From Deltaproteobacteria bacterium (GTDB lineage: Bacteria > Desulfobacterota > Desulfobacteria > Desulfobacterales > Desulfatibacillaceae), in the NCBI GenBank assembly GCA_019308705.1, contig JAFDHW010000057.1, positions 1 through 10,116 of the forward strand: a DNA stretch of 10,116 nt, in the 5' to 3' direction. Made by a program: the position numbers and the translations under genes. Under the pieces are notes generated by a model that was not told the origin of the DNA, searched no databases, and worked only from the letters and a program-made list of their open reading frames with translations. This document shows positions 344-9,778 of this stretch, piece by piece. Positions within the stretch are counted from its first letter, which is position 1; each line of letters begins with the position of its first letter.

Positions 344-1669
344 TCATTCCACGGCGAAGAAGCTTTCGTCGTATTCCGGCTTGCCCGCGTACCGGGCCAT
401 GAAGAACCCGGGCAGTTGATCCACGTGGGCGAAGAGATTTTCGTCCGCGTCGATGCCCGCGGCCTTGAGCGCCTCCACGATCTTGTCCGGCGCCGGCGGG
501 CAGCCCTTGATGGGCAGGGCGTCTGCGATGGCCGGGTGGTTCTTGTTCTTCTCCCACATGCACTTGCCCACCAGGATGGTGTGCTTCATGCCCGGGGCGG
601 GCTCCATCATCTTGCCGGTCAGCACCTCCACCTGGTCAAAGGGCGTGCCCTTGTAGGCGGCGCGGATGGCGGTGAGGATGAGCCCGTTCAACGCGGAGCA
701 GTAGGTGCACATGGAGGTGTCGAACTTGCGGTAGAAAAGGCCCCGGATACCCTGCTTGGCGAGCGGCACGGGCATCTCGCCGGTCTCGTCGCTCTTGTAG
801 GGGAAGTCGAACTCGTGCGGCGTTGCCGCGGCGGCGATGTCCTCCCCCCGCACGTCCAGGGAAGCGATGTCCAGGGACCGGCCGTGCGTCTTGGCGCAAT
901 GCGTCAAGTGGGGCACCTGTTCGGGTTCGTAACCCAGGAGAGCCGCCCCGACCATGTCCGCGGCCAGGATATCCCAGGAGGCGACCAGCAGGTTGGAGCG
1001 GTGGATGCGGCCGTCGAAGGCCGGGCCCCGTTCCAGGGTGTAGATGCCGTCGATCACGGTGAGGATGGACTTCATGGGGTCGGCCAGGCGCGATACCCAC
1101 CAGTGCAGGTCCTTTTCAGGGTCCGCGCTGTGGCATTTTTTCCGGGAGGGGATGTCGATGGTGCCCTTCAGGTTCTTGATGCCCAATGACACCGTGGTCT
1201 GGTTGTGGGTCTTCATCACGGGCAGGTCCACCACCAGGTCGGCTTCCAGCACGTCCTTGAAAAACCGCAGGGTGCGGCCGCCGCCTATGTCCGCCTTTGC
1301 AAACGGCCCCTCCATGGCGTTCTTCACCTTCACGCCGTAGCGTTCCGCGAGCTTGGCGTACCCCAGGGAGGAAAAGGCGTGGGCCGGGGTTTCCTTGTCC
1401 TTGGGGTCCGCCACCACGCCCTCGCCGATGGTGATGTCCGTGACCCCATGGTCCGCCAAAAGCTTCACCATGTCCTGCACCACCCGGGAGGTGGTGATGA
1501 CCCCCCACTTGGGAAAGGCCGTGGCCTTGGTCCAGAACACGATGTTGGGCTTGATGAAGACCCTTGTCTGCGCGGAGACCCGGGAGAGCCCCCCTGCGAG
1601 GTCCACCACGCCGGCCACGGACTCTCCGGGCCTTTCGTACTTTCCAACTCCGACAACGGGTTTTTCCAT
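344..1669 (-). CDS. DUF362 domain protein with NuoB-like cysteine C-terminus
   Basis: The product is 441 aa. The N-terminal two thirds match DUF362: VFIKPN at about 37-42, the segment ending in DITIGEG (about 78-84), DLPVMKTH near 148-155, SLGIKNLKGTID at about 161-172 and TVIDGIY near 204-210. DUF362 proteins are poorly characterised and often carry iron-sulfur domains. Here there is no ferredoxin CxxCxxCxxxC motif; instead residues 321-392 contain CTYC, then VGKC (Cys370), then KGCPP (Cys390). This resembles the [4Fe-4S] ligand layout of NuoB and hydrogenase small subunits, so cluster binding is my inference. ATG 1669 is chosen because AGGGAGG ends five bases upstream; an in-frame ATG at 1690 would add seven residues but has no such site. 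There is no signal peptide, so it is likely cytoplasmic. It probably forms a unit with the downstream DUF488 gene; substrate unknown. Confidence 0.88.
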   Translation of the reverse strand: MEKPVVGVGKYERPGESVAGVVDLAGGLSRVSAQTRVFIKPNIVFWTKATAFPKWGVITTSRVVQDMVKLLADHGVTDITIGEGVVADPKDKETPAHAFSSLGYAKLAERYGVKVKNAMEGPFAKADIGGGRTLRFFKDVLEADLVVDLPVMKTHNQTTVSLGIKNLKGTIDIPSRKKCHSADPEKDLHWWVSRLADPMKSILTVIDGIYTLERGPAFDGRIHRSNLLVASWDILAADMVGAALLGYEPEQVPHLTHCAKTHGRSLDIASLDVRGEDIAAAATPHEFDFPYKSDETGEMPVPLAKQGIRGLFYRKFDTSMCTYCSALNGLILTAIRAAYKGTPFDQVEVLTGKMMEPAPGMKHTILVGKCMWEKNKNHPAIADALPIKGCPPAPDKIVEALKAAGIDADENLFAHVDQLPGFFMARYAGKPEYDESFFAVE

Positions 1670-1674
1670 CCCAT

Positions 1675-1681
1675 CCTCCCT
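1675..1681 (-). promoter_or_regulatory. Ribosome binding site fixing the DUF362 start
   Basis: The minus strand reads AGGGAGG followed by ATGGG and then ATG at 1669. Five-base spacing to 1669 is near ideal, whereas the upstream ATG at 1690 lies before this site. This decides the start codon of the DUF362 gene. Confidence 0.75.
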
Positions 1682-1732
1682 TTTGGTCATCGACCGGCCG
1701 CCGAAGAGCCGAAAACTTTTTGTTTGCAGGTA

Positions 1733-1765: not shown

Positions 1766-2704
1766 TCATTCGCAAGGCGCTTCCAGGGTGTAGCCCTCGC
1801 CCCACCAGGCAAGGAAGTGGCGGGTCACCACAGCGCCTTCTCCGCCGTCGGCCGCCTCCAGGCGCGAAAGGGCGTCCTGCGCCTTGCCGTCCATGCCCAA
1901 AAGTCCGTACACCTGGGCCGCGTCCGCGTAATACCCGGCGGCTTCGGATAGGTTTCCAAGGGCTTCGGCCACCCTGCCCAGGCCCAAAAGGTCGTCGGCC
2001 ACGCCGGGGAAGTAGCCATCCTGCCGGTCCGCGGAAAAAGCGGTGGAAAAGTGCTCTTGTGCGGCATCCAGCTTGCCGGTTTCGAGCATGAGCCTGCCCA
2101 TGGAATAGTGGGCCGCCGCCCGCCCCCCCTCCGGGCCGCCGGGAGCAGCGAGCGCCCGGTCCAGGCATTTTCCCGCTTCTTCCAGGTCTCCGGCGTCAAG
2201 GGCCATGATGCCCCGCACGTTCCACAGGGGCCAGTAGTCCGCGCCTCCGGGCAGGGCCAGGGCCCGGGAAAGCTCCCTTTTGGCCGAATCCGCCCGGCCG
2301 GCGTCGGCCAGGGCCGCAGCCAGGTTGATTCTGGCCCGGATCTCGCCGGCGGCGTCGCCTGCCCGGGAGAACATCTTTGCCGCCTCTTCGAGAAAGGCCG
2401 CCGCGGTCTGGGGGTCCCCCAGCATGCGGTGGCAGTTGCCCATGTTGTTCAAGGCCACGGCCTTCTTGTCCGTGTCGGCGGCGAGGACCTCCAGCTCCCA
2501 GGCCCGGGTGAAGTGCTTGAGCGCCTTTTGCCAGCAGCCCTTCCGGTATTCCTTCTCGCCTTGGACGGACGCGGCGTTGCCCCCGGCCAGATGGGCGGGA
2601 ACTTCCCTGGCCCCGCCGCCAAAGCACCCGGGCAGCGCCAGGAGCAGGACGGCGGCCAAAACCAGCCCCGCCGGACGGGGCATCTTGACTTCCCGGGTCC
2701 TCAT
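1766..2704 (-). CDS. TPR-repeat lipoprotein of the mla operon
   Basis: The product is 312 aa. The N-terminus has a basic start, a hydrophobic segment (about 13-24) and a lipobox-like LPGC with Cys27 as predicted lipidation site; FGGG follows, without a +2 Asp, so outer-membrane sorting is plausible. The mature part consists of about six degenerate tetratricopeptide repeats: helices beginning near GEKEYRKGCWQKALKHF, ALNNMGNCHRMLGD, INLAAALADAGRADSA, IMALDAGDLEEAGKCL, SMGRLMLETGKLDAAQ and LLGLGRVAEALGNLSEA. TPRs mediate protein-protein contacts. ATG 2704 overlaps the MCE gene stop as ATGA (2701-2704); an in-frame ATG at 2683 would shorten the leader by seven residues without removing the lipobox. 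Position suggests it is the accessory lipoprotein of the transport system, where other MCE systems have MlaC or PqiC-like partners. That role is inference from context. Confidence 0.85.
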   Translation of the reverse strand: MRTREVKMPRPAGLVLAAVLLLALPGCFGGGAREVPAHLAGGNAASVQGEKEYRKGCWQKALKHFTRAWELEVLAADTDKKAVALNNMGNCHRMLGDPQTAAAFLEEAAKMFSRAGDAAGEIRARINLAAALADAGRADSAKRELSRALALPGGADYWPLWNVRGIMALDAGDLEEAGKCLDRALAAPGGPEGGRAAAHYSMGRLMLETGKLDAAQEHFSTAFSADRQDGYFPGVADDLLGLGRVAEALGNLSEAAGYYADAAQVYGLLGMDGKAQDALSRLEAADGGEGAVVTRHFLAWWGEGYTLEAPCE

Positions 2705-3714
2705 CGGACTCTCATTCCGCTTTCGGTGGGGGTGCCTTCGGGCTTCGGCGGAATGCCGCCTCTCACCAGGGGGTTCTTCTTGATGGCGTCGGCCACCTGC
2801 TCCATCTTGCCCATGCCCCGCCGGAAGTCCTCGATGCCCTTGCGCATCCCCCGGGTGACCTCGGGCACGTCCCTGGAGCCCTTTTCCACGTTGGCGGCAA
2901 TGACCTCCACCGAGGCCGCCACCTCGCGGGAGGCCGCCGACAGCCGGTCCACCATCTCCCGGATGCCCCGGGCGCTTTCCCGCACCTGTTCGGCGGTTTC
3001 CGGGGCGGTCCTGGCCGTCTGTTCCAGGGTGGACAGGATCTCCTCCACGGTGGCGATGTTGTCTTGCACCCGGGCCAGAAGCTCGTCGGAGCGAAGCAGG
3101 CCGCCCACGGTTCCCTCGCCGCGTTCCAGCCCCGCCACCACGGCCTCCACGTGGCTCATGGTGCGCCGGGCGGAGTGCAGGGTGGCCAACAGCGGCCCCT
3201 TGGGGTCGCTCAGGGTGTCGGCGGTGTCGGAAAGCTTCTGCACCGCGGCCACGAACTTCTTGGCCGTCTCCTCCACCTGGAACTCCTCCAGGATGTCGGA
3301 AAACGACTTTTTTTCCATGGACAGGATTCGGCCGCCTTCCTTCTTGACGGGCAGGTCCTGGCGGCCGGGCTTGATGGACAGGTACTCGTCGCCGATCAGG
3401 GTGGGGCTTTCCACCGTGACTGTCGTGTCGCCCCGGATGCGGGAGGCGTATTCCTCCTGGATGGCCAAATCCACCCGCACGCCCTGGTCGGTGAGGGTGA
3501 TCTTCTCCACCCGGCCCACGGTGGTCTTGGCGATCTTCACGTCCGCGCCCTCCTGGAGGTTGTAGCTCTCCTCGAACACGGCGTAAAAATCCACGTAGCT
3601 CTTGAACCAGTCCTTGCCCCGGCCGATGGAAACCACCGTGGCCAGGCCCAGGAGCACCACCAGGACCAGGAACGCGCCCACGATCTTTTCCCGGCTTTTG
3701 AATTCTAGTTCCAA
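2701..3714 (-). CDS. mlaD: MlaD-type MCE domain protein with long helical tail
   Basis: This is the MCE subunit of a lipid transport ABC system, about 337 aa. A short basic cytoplasmic end (ELEFKSREK) precedes one membrane anchor (about 11-30). The MCE domain spans about 40-118 and shows the family pattern: YAVFEESYNLQEGADVKIAK, TVGRVEKITLTD, then SPTLIGDEYLSIKPG. Residues from about 135 to 310 are helical and Gln/Glu/Arg-rich without prolines, resembling the coiled-coil tails that form tubes in Mce-type hexamers. The last 30 residues are Pro/Gly-rich. The only initiator that keeps the basic flank before the anchor is TTG at 3714, overlapping the upstream stop by 10 bases; AAGGGG lies 10 bases ahead of it. 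A GTG at 3681 is the alternative. Family membership is certain; the start is less so. Confidence 0.88.
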   Translation of the reverse strand: MELEFKSREKIVGAFLVLVVLLGLATVVSIGRGKDWFKSYVDFYAVFEESYNLQEGADVKIAKTTVGRVEKITLTDQGVRVDLAIQEEYASRIRGDTTVTVESPTLIGDEYLSIKPGRQDLPVKKEGGRILSMEKKSFSDILEEFQVEETAKKFVAAVQKLSDTADTLSDPKGPLLATLHSARRTMSHVEAVVAGLERGEGTVGGLLRSDELLARVQDNIATVEEILSTLEQTARTAPETAEQVRESARGIREMVDRLSAASREVAASVEVIAANVEKGSRDVPEVTRGMRKGIEDFRRGMGKMEQVADAIKKNPLVRGGIPPKPEGTPTESGMRVR

Positions 3715-4436
3715 GCGATGACATCCCCTTCGCCGGGCCGGGGCCCTGCGGGAATCTCCTTGCTGCTGCCGTAAAGGCGGCCGTTTTCGATGGACACGGC
3801 CCGGTTGCACAGGGTGCCGGCGGTCTGGTCCATGGAATAGAGGACCAGCGCCGTGCCCTGTTGCTCTCTGCGCGTTCTCAGGATCTCCAGGAACTTGTGG
3901 TACCGCCAGACGTCCAGCTCGTGGTCCGGCCGCTCCACCAGGAGGATCTCCGGGTTCTTGCAAAGCTCCCGGACGATGAGCGCCAGCCGCACGTCCTCGG
4001 GGTTGGCCGCCGCGGGCCGGTGGCAGAGCTTCTCCTCGATGCCGAAGAACCGGCACAGGGACAGGATATCCTGGTGTCCGGAGTCCTCCTCGAAGTACTT
4101 GCGGGCAAAGACGAGGTTTTCGCCCAGGGAGCGGTTGCACAAAAGCACCGAATCCGCGCCAATGTATCCCACCTTGCGCTTGTAGGGCAACAGCCCGCGG
4201 TAGCCCGCGCCCTCCAGGTATTGCCCCCGGTAGGAGAAAATCCCCGACAGGGGGGGGGCCAGGCTGGCCAGGGCCCGTAGAAACAACCGGGCGTCCTCGC
4301 CCCTGTCCGCGCTCACGAACACTCCCTCGCCCTTCTCCAGGGTGAACTCCGGAACCTCGAAGGTCCGCCCTTCGGGGGAGGAGCGGTACATGCAGTCTTT
4401 CATTCGGAGGAGCATGGGCTGATCCGGAACCGTCAC
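3705..4436 (-). CDS. MlaF-position ABC-fold pseudo-ATPase
   Basis: The product is 243 aa and follows the layout of an ABC nucleotide-binding domain, but every nucleotide-contacting motif is changed. The Walker A position reads SADRGEDAR (42-50), with no GKS/T; the Q-loop residue is Ala94 (VGYIGADS); the LSGGQ position reads AANPE (143-147); Walker B reads ILLVERP (164-170), replacing Asp-Glu with Glu-Arg; the H-loop His is Met202 (YSMDQ). Fold landmarks persist, including PLSGIFSYRG (62-71), LALIVRELCKNPEILL and HELD (172-175). The frame is intact and codon use matches the neighbours, so this is not an obvious decaying pseudogene. GTG 4436 overlaps the permease stop as GTGA; ATG 4415 or 4403 are alternatives. 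It sits where MlaF is expected, between MlaE and MlaD. It probably binds MlaE but should not hydrolyse ATP in the usual way. Confidence 0.85.
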   Translation of the reverse strand: MTVPDQPMLLRMKDCMYRSSPEGRTFEVPEFTLEKGEGVFVSADRGEDARLFLRALASLAPPLSGIFSYRGQYLEGAGYRGLLPYKRKVGYIGADSVLLCNRSLGENLVFARKYFEEDSGHQDILSLCRFFGIEEKLCHRPAAANPEDVRLALIVRELCKNPEILLVERPDHELDVWRYHKFLEILRTRREQQGTALVLYSMDQTAGTLCNRAVSIENGRLYGSSKEIPAGPRPGEGDVIAWN

Positions 4437-5227
4437 AGGTAGAACACGGTGGAGATGAAGATATTGGCCGCCAGGAGGTAGAGCACGGCCTCTATGGCCG
4501 CGCGGGAACTCTGGGGGGGAATCGCCGTCATGCTGCGGGCCACGGTGAACCCCCGGTACAGGCTCACCACGGAGATGATGACCCCGAAAAACAGCGCCTT
4601 TAACGCCCCCACGGCGATGTCCGCGCCGGAGATGGCCTTGGCCACCTGGGCCAGGAAGTGGGCCAGGGAAAGGTCCGTGGCCAGCCAGGTTGCGGTGTAG
4701 CCGCCGAACACCGCGGCAAGGTCGAACAAGAAGAACAGGCAGAGCATGGCCACGGTGATGCCCACCACCCTCGGATAGCCCACCAGGTACAAGGGGTCGA
4801 TGCCCGACATCTCCATGGACTCGATCTCGTTTAGGACCCGCATGTAGGAGACTTCCACGGTGACGGCGATGCCCGAGCGCAAAAGCACGATGAACGCGGT
4901 GACCACGGGGCCCAGTTCCCGCACCAGCAGGAGCACCGCCACCTTGCCCAGGTCCATGTGGGAGGCGATGCGGGAGAACTGCGCCACCAGGAGGCTGCCC
5001 ACCACCACGGCCACGGGGATGAGCACCCACAGGCCCTGCACGGCGGTGAAGTAGATCTGCTCCACGGCGATGCGGTTGGCGAGCTTCCGCCCCTCCCTCG
5101 GGGGCGCCGCCACCATGCGGGCCATGCGGGCCGTCAGGGCGCAGAGGTCCAGCAGGCTTTCGGTGCGCTCGATGAAGGACCGCCCGAGGCGGCCGAGGAA
5201 GATTCCCGGAGCACTGGCGGGTGTCAT
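4433..5227 (-). CDS. mlaE: MlaE family permease of an MCE lipid transport system
   Basis: The product is 264 aa, a normal length for MlaE. An amphipathic N-terminal segment is followed by about five membrane segments (near 61-85, 95-120, 150-175, 203-225 and 243-262). The diagnostic block is present: RELGPVVTAFIVLLRSG (103-119), then MRVLNEIESMEMSGIDP (129-145) and YPRVVG. In this family the permease sits in the inner membrane as a dimer beneath an MCE hexamer, moving phospholipids or related lipids. ATG 5227 is chosen because the upstream in-frame extension (starts at 5326, 5317 or 5314) uses codons unlike the gene and looks like promoter DNA; no start has a strong ribosome binding site. It is the first gene of the operon, and its stop overlaps the next start (GTGA). 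Confidence 0.9.
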   Translation of the reverse strand: MTPASAPGIFLGRLGRSFIERTESLLDLCALTARMARMVAAPPREGRKLANRIAVEQIYFTAVQGLWVLIPVAVVVGSLLVAQFSRIASHMDLGKVAVLLLVRELGPVVTAFIVLLRSGIAVTVEVSYMRVLNEIESMEMSGIDPLYLVGYPRVVGITVAMLCLFFLFDLAAVFGGYTATWLATDLSLAHFLAQVAKAISGADIAVGALKALFFGVIISVVSLYRGFTVARSMTAIPPQSSRAAIEAVLYLLAANIFISTVFYL

Positions 5228-5270
5228 AGAAGAAACCGTCCGTTGGGTGGCGGGGTTGCCATTTGCAAGG

Positions 5271-5305
5271 AATCCTGAGATAAGCTCTTGGTATAAATCC
5301 TTATC
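5271..5305. promoter_or_regulatory. Inverted repeat GATAAG-N15-CTTATC, possible operator
   Basis: GATAAG (5279-5284) and CTTATC (5300-5305) form an inverted repeat whose half-sites are 21 bp apart centre to centre, about two helical turns. They bracket the TATAAA at 5292-5297. AATCCT also occurs twice in direct orientation (5271-5276 and 5296-5301). The arrangement fits a dimeric regulator acting on one or both divergent units, but no regulator is identifiable and a 6-bp repeat can arise by chance. Confidence 0.3.
5289..5297 (+). promoter_or_regulatory. Extended -10-like promoter element for the cyclase gene
   Basis: TGGTATAAA at 5289-5297 fits the extended -10 pattern TGnTATAAT with one mismatch. 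No good -35 lies at normal spacing (a TTGCAA at 5263-5268 is 23 bases away). Transcription would start near 5304 and give a leader of about 80 bases before ATG 5384. Confidence 0.35.
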
Positions 5306-5383
5306 GGAAAGCATCATCCCGGTCAATCGGCATGCGCCGGGCGGCCCGGAAATTTCGGCGTTTTTTCACCCCGGAGACCTTTC

Positions 5384-7681
5384 ATGCTGGAAAAAGCAAA
5401 GGGCCTCTTCACCATCCGGCCGCTGACCATCACCATCCTGGTGCTCCTTTTGGTGGGCGGGGCCTACGTGGTCGGCGTCCCGTTTCTGGACCTCATGGAG
5501 TTCCGCACCGTGGACCTCCGTTTCCGGTTCCGCGGGGAGCAGCCGCCGCTCGACAAGGTGGCCCTGGTGGTCATCGACGAAAAGAGCATCGCCGAGCAGG
5601 GCAAGTGGGTGTGGCCCCGGTCCAAGATGGCGAAGCTGATCACCGCCATTTCCGACGCCGGCGCGGCCTGCGTGGGCCTGGACGTGGGGTTTCTGGAGCC
5701 CGACGATAACGCCGCCGGCAAGGTGGTTTCCAGAGTGCGGAAGCTATTGGCCCGGGAGGGGGTCAACAGCCGCCGCATCGAACGGGGGCTTGCCGCCCTG
5801 GAGAAGGCCGGGGACCACGACGCGGCCTTGGCCGGGGCCATCAAGAACTCCAAGTGCCCGGTGGTGCTGGGCTACTTTTTCCAGCTTTCCGCCGAGGGCT
5901 TGGGCGAGCTTCACCAGAAGGCCAAGGAGGAAAACTTAAAAAACGCCAGGGCATCCCTGTACAACACGGTGCGCCGGTCCCCCGGCGCCCGCGACGCGGG
6001 GCTCATTCCCGCCTTCGCGCCGGAATCCAACGTGACGCCCATCGCCCAGGCCACGGACTTTGCCGGGTTTTTCAACATGGTCCCGGACCGCGACGGCACG
6101 GTGCGCCGCCTGCCCATGGTGCTCGCCTGCGAGGGCGGCATGTATGCGCCCCTGTCGCTGAAAACCCTCCAGGCCTACTTGCGCCGGCAGAACCCGGACG
6201 CCCGGGAGAACCTCCATCTTGTGCTGGACGCCTTCGGCGTGTCCGAAGTGCGCGTGGGCAGCCGGGACATCCCCGTGGACGAGCATGGCCGGCTGCTCAT
6301 CAACTATATGGGCGGTCCCAAGACCTTTCCCCATGTTTCCGCCACGGACCTGTTGGAGGGCCGCAAGCTTCTGGTGGACAAGGGCATGGGCAAGGCGGAG
6401 ATTTCCCTGAAGGACAAGATCGTGCTGGTGGGCGCCACGGCCGTGGGCATCTACGACCTGCGGGTCACCCCTTTTTCCGAAATCTACCCCGGGCTGGAGA
6501 TCCACGCCAACGTGGTGGACAACATCCTTTCCAGGAGATTTTTGCGGCAGCCCAACTGGGTGCGGCTCCTGGACCTTTTCGCCATCTTCGCCGTAAGCGC
6601 GATTCTGGGCGGTCTGCTCCCCAGGTTGAACATCTACACCGGCGGCCTCATGTCCCTGGGGCTTTTCGCCGGATACCTGGGCGCGGGCCAATACCTGTTC
6701 GCCAAGGGGGCGGTGGTGAACCTGGTCTATCCCTTGGCGGCCCTTCTGGTCATGTACGTGTCCACCACCCTCTACAAGTACCTCACCGAGGAACGGGAAA
6801 AGCGCTTTTTGCGGGGCGCGTTTTCCACCTACCTGGCCCCTTCCGTGGTGGACCAGATCCTCAAGAGCCCGGACAAGCTCGCCCTGGGCGGGGAAAAGCG
6901 GGTCATCACCGCGTTTTTCTCCGACGTGCAGGGGTTCACCTCCATCAGCCAGAAACTGGACCCCGAGGAGCTGGTCGAGCTTCTAAACGAGTTTTTGACC
7001 GAGATGACGGACATCATCCTCCAGAACGAGGGCACGGTGGACAAGTACGAGGGCGACGCCATCATCGCGTTTTTCGGCGCGCCGGTGGAGATGCCCGACC
7101 ACGCGGCACGGGCCTGCGTGGCGTGCGTGCAGATGCAGAAGCGCCTGGTGGACTTAAGGGCCAAGTTCGCCGCCGAAGGCCGGCCGCTTTTGCACATGCG
7201 CATCGGCATGGACACGGGCTTTGCCGTGGTGGGCAACATGGGCTCGTCGCTCCGCATGGACTACACCATGATGGGCGACATGGTGAACACCGCCGCCCGG
7301 CTGGAGGGCGTGAACAAGGCCTACGGCACCTACACCATGGTGAGCATGGCCACTTACCAGCAGGCGAAGGACCAGGTGTTCGGCCGGGAATTGGACGCGG
7401 TGAACGTGGTGGGCCGGGACGAGCCGGTGCGCGTGGTGGAGATCCTGGACCTGGCGGGCGAGGTGCCCGGAAACCTGCTGGCCCTGGCGGAAAACTACGA
7501 GAAGGCCCTGGCCGCCTACCGGAACCGGGACTTCGCCGGGGCGCTCAAGCGCTTCGAGGCCATCCTGGAAACCGAGCCCAACGACGGGCCTTCGGCGACC
7601 ATGGCCGCCCGGTGCAGGGAGTATCTCGAGAACCCGCCGCCCGAGGACTGGGACGGCTCTTACACCATGACCAGCAAGTAG
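5384..7681 (+). CDS. CHASE2 domain class III adenylate cyclase
   Basis: This 765-aa inner-membrane sensor is predicted to make cAMP from ATP. One membrane helix (about 13-34) is followed by a periplasmic CHASE2 domain (about 38-385) with FRTVDLRFRFRG, VALVVIDEKSI, PDRDGTVRR and LVGATAVGIYDLRVTPFSEIYPG. Three further helices follow (about 393-412, 418-437 and 445-465). The catalytic domain (about 505-690) keeps both metal aspartates (Asp514 in FFSDVQGFTS, Asp558 in KYEGDAI), Lys554 and Thr628 at adenine-selecting positions, and Asn635 and Arg639 in VNTAAR, so it should be active. Residues 701-750 form one or two TPR-like helical pairs. ATG 5384 is preceded by GGAG eight bases upstream. The CHASE2 ligand is unknown. 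Guanylate cyclase activity is unlikely given Lys554. The gene diverges from the mla operon and lies upstream of two envelope-protein genes. Confidence 0.93.
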   Translation: MLEKAKGLFTIRPLTITILVLLLVGGAYVVGVPFLDLMEFRTVDLRFRFRGEQPPLDKVALVVIDEKSIAEQGKWVWPRSKMAKLITAISDAGAACVGLDVGFLEPDDNAAGKVVSRVRKLLAREGVNSRRIERGLAALEKAGDHDAALAGAIKNSKCPVVLGYFFQLSAEGLGELHQKAKEENLKNARASLYNTVRRSPGARDAGLIPAFAPESNVTPIAQATDFAGFFNMVPDRDGTVRRLPMVLACEGGMYAPLSLKTLQAYLRRQNPDARENLHLVLDAFGVSEVRVGSRDIPVDEHGRLLINYMGGPKTFPHVSATDLLEGRKLLVDKGMGKAEISLKDKIVLVGATAVGIYDLRVTPFSEIYPGLEIHANVVDNILSRRFLRQPNWVRLLDLFAIFAVSAILGGLLPRLNIYTGGLMSLGLFAGYLGAGQYLFAKGAVVNLVYPLAALLVMYVSTTLYKYLTEEREKRFLRGAFSTYLAPSVVDQILKSPDKLALGGEKRVITAFFSDVQGFTSISQKLDPEELVELLNEFLTEMTDIILQNEGTVDKYEGDAIIAFFGAPVEMPDHAARACVACVQMQKRLVDLRAKFAAEGRPLLHMRIGMDTGFAVVGNMGSSLRMDYTMMGDMVNTAARLEGVNKAYGTYTMVSMATYQQAKDQVFGRELDAVNVVGRDEPVRVVEILDLAGEVPGNLLALAENYEKALAAYRNRDFAGALKRFEAILETEPNDGPSATMAARCREYLENPPPEDWDGSYTMTSK

Positions 7682-7757: not shown

Positions 7758-8690
7758 ATGAGGCGAAACAACCGGCGACACCTGCTTTTTTTCGCAGCAA
7801 CGGCCGTCTGCCTGGCCTGCGCGCTTTCCCCGGCCGCCGCGGGCCGACACGCGCCCGTGGTCCAGGCGGTGGGGGACTTCGGCTACATCCGCTGGTCCTC
7901 GGACCCTCCCCGCAGCCTGGCCATGGTTGTGGGCAGGGGCGTGGGCGCACCTCCCGACGGCGGCGGCCGGGCCCTTTCCGGCCCCCTGGCCCGGGCCAGG
8001 GAACAGGCCCTCGAAAACCTCCTTTCCGTGTGCATGAACGTGCGGGTGACCGCGGATTCCACCATCGGCGACGCGGTGGCAAAAGACCCGGGAGCGCTTG
8101 CGCAGATCAAGGAAATGGTGGAAACGGCCAGGATGTGCAACCGGGAATACCTTTCCGACGGCACGGTGCTGGTGCGTATGGGCATTCCCCTGTACGGGGG
8201 GCTGGCCCAGGTGGTCCTGCCCCCCACCATCGTGCAGGTGCCCCAGGTGCGCCAGGTGCAGGCCCAGCGGCCGGCCCGGGCCGAGGCAAAGGCCGTGACC
8301 CCGGCCGGGGAGGAGCCCGAGCCGCCCAAGACAGGGCTTCTGGTGGACGCCCGGGGGCTTGCCGCGGCCCCTGCCATGGTCCCCCGCATCCTGGACGAGG
8401 ACGGCCGGGAGGTCTACGGCCCGGCCTGGGTGAGCCGGGAGTACGCAGTCTCCGGCATGTGCGGCTACACGCGGGACCCGGACCGCGCCGCCAGCCATCC
8501 CCGGGTGGGGGAAAACCCCCTCACGGTGAAGGCCCTTTCCGTGCGCGGCGAGGGGCGATGCGACCTGGTCATCTCCAATGCGGACGCCGCCCGGCTCAGG
8601 GGGGCTTCGGAAAACCTCTCCTTTTTACGCCGGTGCGGGGTCGTGGTGCTCCTGGACCCCGCCACCCAAGACCCCTGGGAGGACGGATGA
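7758..8690 (+). CDS. Secreted LPP20/FlgT-like envelope protein
   Basis: The product is 310 aa. A basic start and hydrophobic core (about 8-23) ending SPAAAG suggest a type I signal peptide cut near 28-29. Cysteines 18 and 21 lie inside the core and do not form a good lipobox. Residues about 35-155 contain a conserved-looking ARAREQALENLLSVCMNVRV helix and VRMGIPLYGGLAQVVLPP, as in LPP20 or FlgT N-terminal-type domains. A linker (about 157-190) starts with repeated QV units and turns Pro/Ala/Glu-rich. The C-terminal region (about 191-300) reads TGLLVDARGL, PRILDEDGREVYG, VSREYA, then NPLTVKAL, DLVISNADAARL and CGVVVLLD, a block I associate with uncharacterised deltaproteobacterial secreted proteins. 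GGGGAG lies five bases before the ATG. The stop overlaps the next start (ATGA). The biochemical role is unknown; an envelope or surface-assembly role is inferred. Confidence 0.72.
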   Translation: MRRNNRRHLLFFAATAVCLACALSPAAAGRHAPVVQAVGDFGYIRWSSDPPRSLAMVVGRGVGAPPDGGGRALSGPLARAREQALENLLSVCMNVRVTADSTIGDAVAKDPGALAQIKEMVETARMCNREYLSDGTVLVRMGIPLYGGLAQVVLPPTIVQVPQVRQVQAQRPARAEAKAVTPAGEEPEPPKTGLLVDARGLAAAPAMVPRILDEDGREVYGPAWVSREYAVSGMCGYTRDPDRAASHPRVGENPLTVKALSVRGEGRCDLVISNADAARLRGASENLSFLRRCGVVVLLDPATQDPWEDG

Positions 8691-9778
8691 GGCCGGTTCT
8701 TTTGATCCTGGCGGCGGTCCTGCTGGCGGCCGCCGGGGCCTGCGCCCCGGTGCGCCAGGGGCCCGTGGGCCTGGACACCCCCCAGCACCACCGGAAAATC
8801 GGGCGCAAATTTCTGGAGTTGGAGAAGTACGCCGACGCCTTGCGGGAATTCACCCGCGCCAAGGATCTCCAGGAAAACAGCCTCTCCTGGATGGGCATCG
8901 CCCTGGCCGAGGCGGGCCTCGGCCGCATGGACCAGGCCATGGAACACCTGGACCAGGCCATGCGCTACGCCTGGATCGACGGCCACGTGGTCGAGGTGTA
9001 CACGGCGCGCATCCGCGCGCTCACCATGGGCGGGGACGCCTGGTCGGCCAACTGGCTGGAGCAGGCCAAGTACGCCTTTGACCGCGCCCGGGGCATGGAT
9101 CCGGACGACGACGCCCCCTTCTTCTACATGGGCCTGGCCTACAAACAGGGGTTGAAGTTCGTGGAAGCGGGCCGCCTGTTCGCCGCGGTGATCCAGAAAA
9201 ACGGCGACTACGCCGCCCGGGCGGACAAGGAATACGCGGAGGTGCAAAAGATCCGCCGGGCAAAGCCCCGCTCGGAGGTGGGCAAAAGAATCGCCCTGGC
9301 CGACCGCATCACCCGGGCCCAGGCCGCGGCCCTGCTGGTGGCGGAAACCGACGCCGAGGCGCTTCTGGGCGGCACGGAAAGAGACCCCCGCCTGCCCACG
9401 GACATAACGGGCCACCCCCTGGCGCCGGAGATCATGGCCGCGGTCCGCCTGGGCATCGACGGCCTGTCCCTTTACCCGGACGGCTCCTTCGGCCCGGACG
9501 AACCCGTTACCCGCTGCCAGTTCGCCACGGCTGTCCAGGATTTTCTCATCCGGGCCTCCTCGCGCCCCGTCCTGGCCACGGAATTTTCCGGTGTCAGCTC
9601 CCCCTTTCCGGACGTGAAAAAGGATTCCCCCTGTTTCAACGCGGTGATGGTGTGCACCACCCGGGGGCTGCTCCAGGCCAGGGATCTGTCCACGGGCTGT
9701 TTCGCCCCTGCGGACGCCGTTAGCGGCATAGACGCCCTGTGCGCGGCGTCCGCCTTAAGAAGCCTTCTTACGCGCTGA
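8687..9778 (+). CDS. TPR and S-layer-homology domain lipoprotein
   Basis: The product is 363 aa. A short leader (MRPVLLILAAVLLAAAGAC) ends in a relaxed lipobox AGAC, predicting a lipid anchor on Cys19; the -3 residue is Ala rather than Leu, so this is less certain. Residues 35-190 hold about four TPR-like units, such as RKFLELEKYADALREFTRA, WMGIALAEAGLGRMDQAMEHL and FFYMGLAYKQGLKFVEAGRLF. Residues 202-361 contain S-layer-homology material: a partial unit ending ITRAQAAALLV (208-218), a clear unit with LSLYPDGSFGPDEPVTRCQFA (about 260-280), and a third with FPDVKKDSPCFNAV and ARDLSTGCFAPADAV. SLH units normally bind cell-wall polymers; here they may face peptidoglycan. The start overlaps the previous stop by ATGA (8687-8690), so the two proteins are likely made together and may interact. 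Confidence 0.85.
   Translation: MRPVLLILAAVLLAAAGACAPVRQGPVGLDTPQHHRKIGRKFLELEKYADALREFTRAKDLQENSLSWMGIALAEAGLGRMDQAMEHLDQAMRYAWIDGHVVEVYTARIRALTMGGDAWSANWLEQAKYAFDRARGMDPDDDAPFFYMGLAYKQGLKFVEAGRLFAAVIQKNGDYAARADKEYAEVQKIRRAKPRSEVGKRIALADRITRAQAAALLVAETDAEALLGGTERDPRLPTDITGHPLAPEIMAAVRLGIDGLSLYPDGSFGPDEPVTRCQFATAVQDFLIRASSRPVLATEFSGVSSPFPDVKKDSPCFNAVMVCTTRGLLQARDLSTGCFAPADAVSGIDALCAASALRSLLTR

What the first reader, a model, noticed from the sequence alone, without database searches (positions are those of the whole stretch)
3705..4436. ABC-fold protein in the MlaF position has lost all nucleotide-binding motifs
Seen: Walker A reads SADRGEDAR, the Q-loop Gln is Ala94, the signature reads AANPE, Walker B is LLVERP, and the H-loop His is Met202, while the fold landmarks and D-loop-like HELD survive in an intact, coupled reading frame. 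Known: MlaF hydrolyses ATP to drive MlaE/MlaD lipid movement. Inference: this system is either not ATP-driven, borrows an ATPase encoded elsewhere, or uses the protein as a structural or regulatory cap on MlaE. Retention of an open frame with every motif gone points to selection for a non-catalytic role.
Basis: partly seen in the sequence, partly recalled or inferred. Interest (0 to 1): 0.78.

Follow-up and report, generated by a model that had tools for sequence, protein, structure and literature searches.

The report
Lipid transporter with dead ATPase subunit
In many bacteria, a membrane lipid transporter of a kind that normally burns ATP carries an ATPase subunit that has lost every part needed to use ATP yet is kept by selection, which suggests that this transporter works without ATP.

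Summary
The protein (3705-4415, minus strand, 236 aa) has a confident predicted ABC-ATPase fold but no Walker A, signature, catalytic Glu or H-loop, and lies between an MlaE permease and a long MCE protein. It is no local pseudogene: 54 of 194 genomes of the order, own included, carry it. In the 53 aligned copies the Walker A Lys and the catalytic Glu occur 0 times. Median dN/dS is 0.19 (58 pairs). In a wider scan of one MlaE clade, 66 of 75 neighbouring ATPases lost Walker A and 9 keep it; the tree needs at least three changes. In two lineages MlaE lacks the subunit, and there its coupling-helix motif is destroyed (0-20% of conserved residues kept, against 60% or more in 89 sequences with the subunit). 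So docking is selected and catalysis is not. Four genomes with the operon show no other MlaE, and their best MlaF-like ATPases belong to other transporters, which speaks against a borrowed MlaF. Best reading: a non-catalytic cap on MlaE in an ATP-independent MCE lipid conduit. Motif loss, operon, selection and the coupling-helix link are shown; transport, its direction and the cap's exact role are inferred.

The parts
   Evidence: open frame; aligns with 52 relatives from the ATG; complete predicted ABC fold
4287..4313 (-). former Walker A, SADRGEDAR (residues 35-43); Lys position is Ala42
   Evidence: Lys in 0 of 53 copies, Ala in 44 of 53; predicted helix starts at residue 39, loop of 2 residues against a 5-residue loop with the helix starting at the Lys in the Walker-A-intact relative L210
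4155..4157 (-). former Q-loop Gln, Ala87
   Evidence: Gln in 2 of 53 copies
3996..4007 (-). former signature LSGG, here ANPE (residues 137-140)
   Evidence: the two Gly positions are Gly in 0 of 53 copies each
3927..3944 (-). former Walker B, LLVERP (residues 158-163); catalytic Glu is Arg162
   Evidence: catalytic Glu in 0 of 53 copies, Arg in 34 of 53; Walker B Asp in 10 of 53, Glu in 41
3831..3833 (-). former H-loop His, Met195
   Evidence: His in 2 of 53 copies
4433..5326 (-). MlaE-type permease (MlaE'), upstream partner
   Evidence: PF02405 E 8e-43; distinct clade from canonical MlaE, 100/100 support
4790..4834 (-). coupling-helix segment of MlaE' (residues 165-179, LNEIESMEMSGIDPL)
   Evidence: lines up with E. 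coli MlaE EQLSSMEMMAVDPL; kept in all 89 sequences with pABC, destroyed in the 5 without it
2701..3711 (-). MCE/MlaD-type protein with long helical C-terminal part, probable TTG start overlapping the pABC stop
   Evidence: PF02470 E 1.9e-16; same place and strand in 51 of 53 relatives' loci

Best explanation
The gene encodes a non-catalytic NBD (pABC) that docks on the coupling helix of its own MlaE-type permease, as MlaF does on MlaE, but cannot bind or hydrolyse ATP in the usual way. The MlaE'-pABC-MCE' operon is a three-part MCE lipid transporter that has stopped using ATP. The most likely working is a passive, gradient-driven lipid conduit: pABC holds the MlaE' dimer in its nucleotide-free, outward-open state and stabilises the assembly with the MCE hexamer, so that lipids pass between the inner membrane and the MCE tunnel without a power stroke. 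Shown by sequence: motif loss, conserved operon, purifying selection, dependence of the coupling-helix motif on pABC. Shown by prediction: ABC fold, P-loop replaced by a turn and helix. Inferred: docking itself, lipid as substrate, passive transport, its direction, the cap role.
For: Motifs: Walker A Lys 0/53, 0/7, 0/54 and 0/12; catalytic Glu 0/53, 0/7, 0/54 and 1/12 in four sets, the third overlapping the first. Operon order MlaE'-pABC-MCE' on one strand in 47 of 53 relatives' loci. Co-occurrence in 194 genomes: MlaE' in 59, pABC in 54, both in 53. Selection: 58 pairs, median dN/dS pABC 0.193 (0.093-0.337), MlaE' 0.142, MCE' 0.149. Coupling helix: 10 conserved positions kept at mean 0.85, minimum 0.60 in 89 sequences with pABC, Glu167 and Gly175 in 89 of 89; 0.00, 0.10, 0.20, 0.20, 0.20 in the 5 without pABC, whose other conserved positions stay at 0.54-0.70. 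Far relatives with an NBD keep 0.40-0.80 of the helix though their core falls to 0.36-0.53. In E. coli MlaF the single changes Lys47Ala or Glu170Gln already abolish function (PMC7367683, passages); pABC has both positions changed. Nucleotide-free MlaE is outward-open and ATP-independent lipid transfer from MlaD to MlaC has been reported (PMC10212509, passages).
Against: pABC evolves faster than its partners: its dN/dS exceeds MlaE' in 48 and MCE' in 47 of 58 pairs. No complex was modelled and no lipid transport, ATP binding or phenotype was measured. Loss of pABC together with the coupling helix rests on two lineages, f66 (one clean case, G145; in G167 a 28-N gap separates MlaE' and MCE') and f51 (three genomes, MCE' not adjacent). 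If MlaE' and MCE' work without any NBD in G145, pABC is not strictly needed for the basic function. The review that reports ATP-independent transfer also reports that ATP hydrolysis blocks it and favours retrograde transport for E. coli.
Confidence: 0.62

Rival explanations
1. pABC is mainly a regulator: a gate or brake on MlaE', perhaps reading a ligand, a partner protein or membrane state, rather than a static cap. Lipid movement may be driven by another energy source or be passive.
For: pABC has family-specific nearly invariant residues that the ABC fold alone does not explain, such as Asn94, Glu150 and Lys153. The operon often faces divergent envelope or signalling genes, e.g. a CHASE2-cyclase in 14 of 55 loci. 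Some relatives lose pABC and keep MlaE' and MCE' (G145), as expected of an accessory part.
Against: No ligand site, partner or regulatory domain was found. Outside the three genes the neighbourhood is not conserved.
Confidence: 0.22
2. The transporter is still ATP-driven: a catalytic ATPase encoded elsewhere replaces pABC on MlaE' (as one shared ATPase serves several Mce systems in mycobacteria, recalled), and pABC is a chaperone or competitor.
For: The own genome encodes three canonical MlaE with an MlaF next to each. The coupling-helix motif of MlaE' still resembles that of E. coli MlaE.
Against: A pABC/MlaF heterodimer would have no canonical composite site, as pABC lacks both Walker A and signature (inference). 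No orphan MlaF in the own genome: the next best to the MlaE-linked ones is a ProV-type ATPase. G189 (one 3.4-Mb contig), G181, G042 and G147 have a single MlaE, the MlaE', and their best MlaF matches, 111-130 bits against 209-529 for MlaF in three other genomes, name as other transporters' ATPases. These four genomes are estimated 87-97% complete, and only the best match of each was named.
Confidence: 0.12
3. pABC binds nucleotide in a non-canonical way and uses it as a signal, without hydrolysis.
For: The ABC fold is otherwise complete.
Against: Walker A Lys, Q-loop, signature Gly and catalytic Glu are gone together, and in the model the P-loop is rewound into helix.
Confidence: 0.03
4. A decaying pseudogene or an assembly error.
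For: dN/dS is a little higher than for the partner genes.
Against: Open frames and the same motif losses in 52 relatives and in 66 loci of named genomes; dN/dS at most 0.337 in 58 pairs.
Confidence: 0.01

Closest known systems
E. coli MlaFEDB (Mla phospholipid transporter)
   Same: MlaE permease family (PF02405), MCE protein (PF02470), an ABC-fold subunit encoded beside MlaE, a matching coupling-helix motif
   Different: ABC subunit has no catalytic motifs; long MCE protein; no MlaB or MlaC was seen among the conserved neighbours. MlaF Lys47Ala and Glu170Gln are dead in E. coli (PMC7367683, passages). MlaE' has Asn288 where E. coli MlaE has Asp250
Veillonella parvula three-gene MlaEFD with long MlaD
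   Same: three-gene layout, long MCE protein, no MlaA or MlaC beside it
   Different: the paper treats its MlaF as closely resembling that of Proteobacteria (PMC10665443, passages); here it is non-catalytic. I saw no mention of degenerate MlaF in the passages shown
Mycobacterial Mce1/YrbE with MceG
   Same: MlaE-type permeases (8fed chains match A2) with MCE proteins; the ATPase is encoded apart (recalled)
   Different: there an active shared ATPase exists; here no orphan MlaF was found in the own genome and the operon keeps a dead one
PqiABC and LetAB (YebST) MCE systems
   Same: MCE systems that work without an ABC ATPase (recalled)
   Different: their membrane partner is not an MlaE permease (recalled)
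ABC transporters with one degenerate ATP site (TAP, TM287/288 and the like, recalled)
   Same: an NBD with degenerate motifs
   Different: those keep one canonical composite site through a partner NBD; no partner NBD is encoded in this operon

Membership tests
ABC ATPase (NBD) fold | complete NBD fold | tested here: met
ABC ATPase (active enzyme) | Walker A Lys and catalytic Glu | tested here: not met
   0 of 53 and 0 of 53; control: own-genome canonical NBDs 20 of 20 and 20 of 20
ABC ATPase (active enzyme) | LSGG signature Gly pair and H-loop His | tested here: not met
   Gly 0 of 53 at each position; His 2 of 53
MlaF | encoded beside MlaE and an MCE protein | tested here: met
   47 of 53 relatives' loci complete; of the other 6, five are cut by contig ends and in G072 MlaE' lies on another scaffold beside an N gap
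MlaF | NCBI MlaF model PRK11831 | tested here: not met
   not among the best 25 families for the window protein, though it is the best for the own genome's canonical MlaF; 77 families matched and only 25 were shown
MlaF | C-terminal extension that clasps the neighbour subunit | tested here: inconclusive
   window residues after about 216 are unstructured with low pLDDT; dimer not modelled
MlaE | PF02405 above cut-off and coupling helix between TM2 and TM3 | tested here: met
   146.9 bits, cut-off 22.5; alignment to 6xbd_G
MCE/MlaD | PF02470 above cut-off | tested here: met
   60.5 bits, cut-off 25.1
FtsE | NCBIfam FtsE above curated cut-off | tested here: not met
   47.2 bits, cut-off 264.85
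MceG-like borrowed ATPase | orphan MlaF-like ATPase in the genome | tested here: not met
   own genome: 30 PF00005 loci scored, the two full MlaF and one contig-end fragment lie beside MlaE, next best is ProV
Mla lipid transporter | moves phospholipids between membranes | not testable with these tools
   needs biochemistry

The most novel reading that the evidence does not exclude
A whole clade of MlaE/MCE transporters, spread over several phyla, has given up ATP. Decay goes stepwise: the H-loop and the Gly pair of the signature first (8 Walker-A-intact relatives: His 0 of 8, signature Gly 2 of 8), then Walker A, by at least three changes on the MlaE tree, and at the end the NBD gene itself with the coupling helix. 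The dead NBD locks MlaE outward-open, so these systems are ATP-free lipid conduits, possibly feeding lipid outward (anterograde).
Probability: 0.45. Interest if true: 0.9.

Novelty: new variant of a known kind. Interest (0 to 1): 0.8.

Why it matters
What ATP hydrolysis does in Mla-type transport, and in which direction lipid moves, is debated (PMC10212509, passages). A natural clade that kept permease, MCE tunnel and a dead ATPase separates the tunnel from the motor. It gives a direct test of ATP-free transport by an MlaE/MCE complex and of what an NBD does for an ABC permease besides hydrolysis. Complete or isolate genomes that carry it include Desulfosarcina alkanivorans PL12, Desulfoluna limicola ASN36 and Desulfobotulus alkaliphilus ASO4-4. 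Genome surveys that call MlaF from synteny and ABC models would count these as ordinary transporters or as lacking MlaF.

Tried and rejected
Local pseudogene or sequencing error: rejected by 52 relatives with the same losses. FtsE/LolD as the true identity: top NCBIfam and PDB sequence matches but far below the FtsE and LolD cut-offs, and the gene neighbours are MlaE and MCE. Heterodimer with MlaF: rejected by motif logic, not by experiment. Orphan MlaF: not found. A conserved fourth gene: none found; clusters beyond the three genes reach at most 20 of 55 loci, apart from overlapping-frame clusters on the opposite strand. The MlaF profile was built partly from the own-genome MlaF that it then scored, so their scores are inflated. 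The tree has long branches (L218, L213, L222, L228) and used a chosen subset of Thermodesulfobacteriota rows. dN/dS pairs are not independent and the window itself is not in them. Paper searches showed no report of degenerate MlaF; most subscription papers and all bioRxiv preprints are outside that library, and most hits were seen only as listings.

Full report

2. It is a family. The window protein was searched against 194 genomes of the order, own included. 54 match at E 2.7e-16 or better; the next match, G021 (2.1e-14), has an intact Walker A and no MlaE or MCE beside it. Of 53 relatives' loci, 47 show MlaE'-pABC-MCE' in this order on one strand; five are cut by contig ends, and in G072 MlaE' sits on another scaffold beside an N run. 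In alignment (window plus 52, one fragment left out) the Walker A Lys occurs in 0 of 53, the catalytic Glu in 0 of 53, each signature Gly in 0 of 53, Gln in 2, H-loop His in 2, Walker B Asp in 10, D-loop Asp in 4. The control set of 20 own-genome NBDs has Lys 20 of 20 and Glu 20 of 20. Other residues are nearly invariant instead: G58, L76, R149 and P163 are invariant in 42 rows, with A50, P55, K79, N94, N100, E150 and K153 above 90%.

3. Spread. With the family profile, 395 genomes of the phylum were searched: outside the order G455 scores strongly (1.5e-71) and G324 and five genomes of family f90 stand above the bulk (1e-30 to 3e-36). All seven have the same three-gene operon and a degenerate NBD. 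A scan of named genomes with the MlaE' alignment gave 242 relatives, of which the best 80 were returned. 75 of these 80 have an NBD next to MlaE; the other five end at a contig end beside MlaE. Walker A is present in 9 (L202, L203, L205, L208-L211, L222, L223) and absent in 66. Carriers of the degenerate form are mostly Desulfobacterales, e.g. Desulfosarcina alkanivorans PL12, Desulfoluna species and Desulfobotulus alkaliphilus, but also records named Syntrophales, Desulfobacca, Myxococcota, Oligoflexia, Muproteobacteria and Sumerlaeota. L223 (Zetaproteobacteria) is fully canonical. In the other eight Walker-A-intact relatives (Elusimicrobia, Bdellovibrionota and others) Lys is 8 of 8 and catalytic Glu 6 of 8, but the signature Gly pair is 2 of 8 and the H-loop His 0 of 8. 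So decay began before Walker A was lost.

4. Tree. On a maximum-likelihood tree of 63 MlaE sequences (a chosen subset), the MlaE' clade separates from canonical MlaE with support 100/100; the state of Walker A needs at least 3 changes, absence of the NBD 2. The window groups with its genus and family, which fits vertical descent. Some rows have long branches and their place is unsure.

5. Selection. 58 pairs with dS 0.1-1.5 in all three genes, from 92 distinct pABC genes, give median dN/dS 0.193 for pABC (range 0.093-0.337), 0.142 for MlaE' and 0.149 for MCE'. pABC is constrained, somewhat less than its partners.

6. Natural control. In the 194 genomes MlaE' (230 bits or more; canonical MlaE reach about 152) occurs in 59 and pABC in 54, both in 53. 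G104 has pABC only, at a contig end; G113 has MlaE' at a contig end. Five genomes have MlaE' with no pABC anywhere at this sensitivity: in G145 MlaE' is followed 15 bases later by MCE' with no gap; in G167 a run of 28 N lies between them; in G140, G058 and G106 MlaE' has neither gene beside it, though MCE'-like genes lie elsewhere in G140 and G058. In these five the coupling-helix motif is gone: 0.00-0.20 of ten conserved positions kept, while 119 conserved positions elsewhere are kept at 0.54-0.70. In 89 MlaE' with pABC the values are mean 0.85 (minimum 0.60) and 0.81 (minimum 0.55); Glu167 and Gly175 are 89 of 89. More distant relatives that have an NBD keep 0.40-0.80 of the helix with a core of 0.36-0.53. 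The segment corresponds to EQLSSMEMMAVDPL of E. coli MlaE, and the MlaE coupling helix mediates contact with MlaF (PMC7790496, passages). Hence the helix appears to be kept because pABC sits on it.

7. No motor to borrow. The own genome has four MlaE: three with PF00005 beside them and the window's. With an MlaF profile, the MlaE-linked ATPases score 439 and 417 bits, a contig-end fragment 104; the next is 198 bits and is ProV by NCBIfam. Of 54 pABC genomes, G189 (a single 3.4-Mb contig), G181, G042 and G147 have one MlaE each, the MlaE'. Their best matches to MlaF are 111-130 bits, against 529 in the own genome, 340 in G145 and 209 in G140, and by NCBIfam resemble PhnT/Pot, Opp/Dpp, ProV and Wtp ATPases, not MlaF (only the best match per genome was tested). 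A pABC-MlaF mixed dimer would have no canonical site, as pABC lacks both Walker A and signature.

8. Mechanism. In E. coli MlaF Lys47Ala or Glu170Gln abolishes function (PMC7367683, passages), so this system cannot work as E. coli Mla does. Nucleotide-free MlaE is outward-open, and transfer of lipid from MlaD to MlaC without ATP has been reported, which ATP hydrolysis prevents (PMC10212509, passages). A permanently nucleotide-free complex would therefore favour passive exchange with the MCE tunnel, and possibly outward flow. That is inference. MlaE' keeps Arg and Glu of the buried charge cluster and the Lys, but has Asn for Asp250.

9. Print. The V. parvula study describes three-gene MlaEFD with long MlaD as widespread and notes uncertain MlaF annotation (PMC10665443, passages). 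Eight searches of the held library showed no report of degenerate MlaF.

Noticed in passing
window 5384-7681 (+): Divergent CHASE2 plus adenylate/guanylate cyclase gene (PF05226, PF00211); related ORFs lie near the operon in 14 of 55 loci.
   Followed up: partly
window 7758-8690 (+): 310-aa protein with no Pfam match, yet relatives lie near the operon in 20 of 55 loci, on the opposite strand to it.
   Followed up: no
window 8687-9778 (+): TPR protein with two S-layer homology stretches (PF00395 E 1e-12).
   Followed up: no
window 1766-2704 (-): TPR protein with a lipoprotein-like N-terminus; its ATG overlaps the MCE stop, so it may be coupled to the operon here, but it is not conserved in most relatives.
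   Followed up: partly
window 347-1690 (-): DUF362 protein (PF04015 E 7e-37).
   Followed up: no
window 4460-4470 (MlaE' residue 288): MlaE' has Asn where E. coli MlaE has Asp250 of the buried charge cluster; Asn is invariant in 24 aligned MlaE'.
   Followed up: partly
L228 3936-5785: G145 keeps MlaE' and MCE' 15 bases apart with no NBD at all: an MCE system with an MlaE permease and no ABC subunit.
   Followed up: yes
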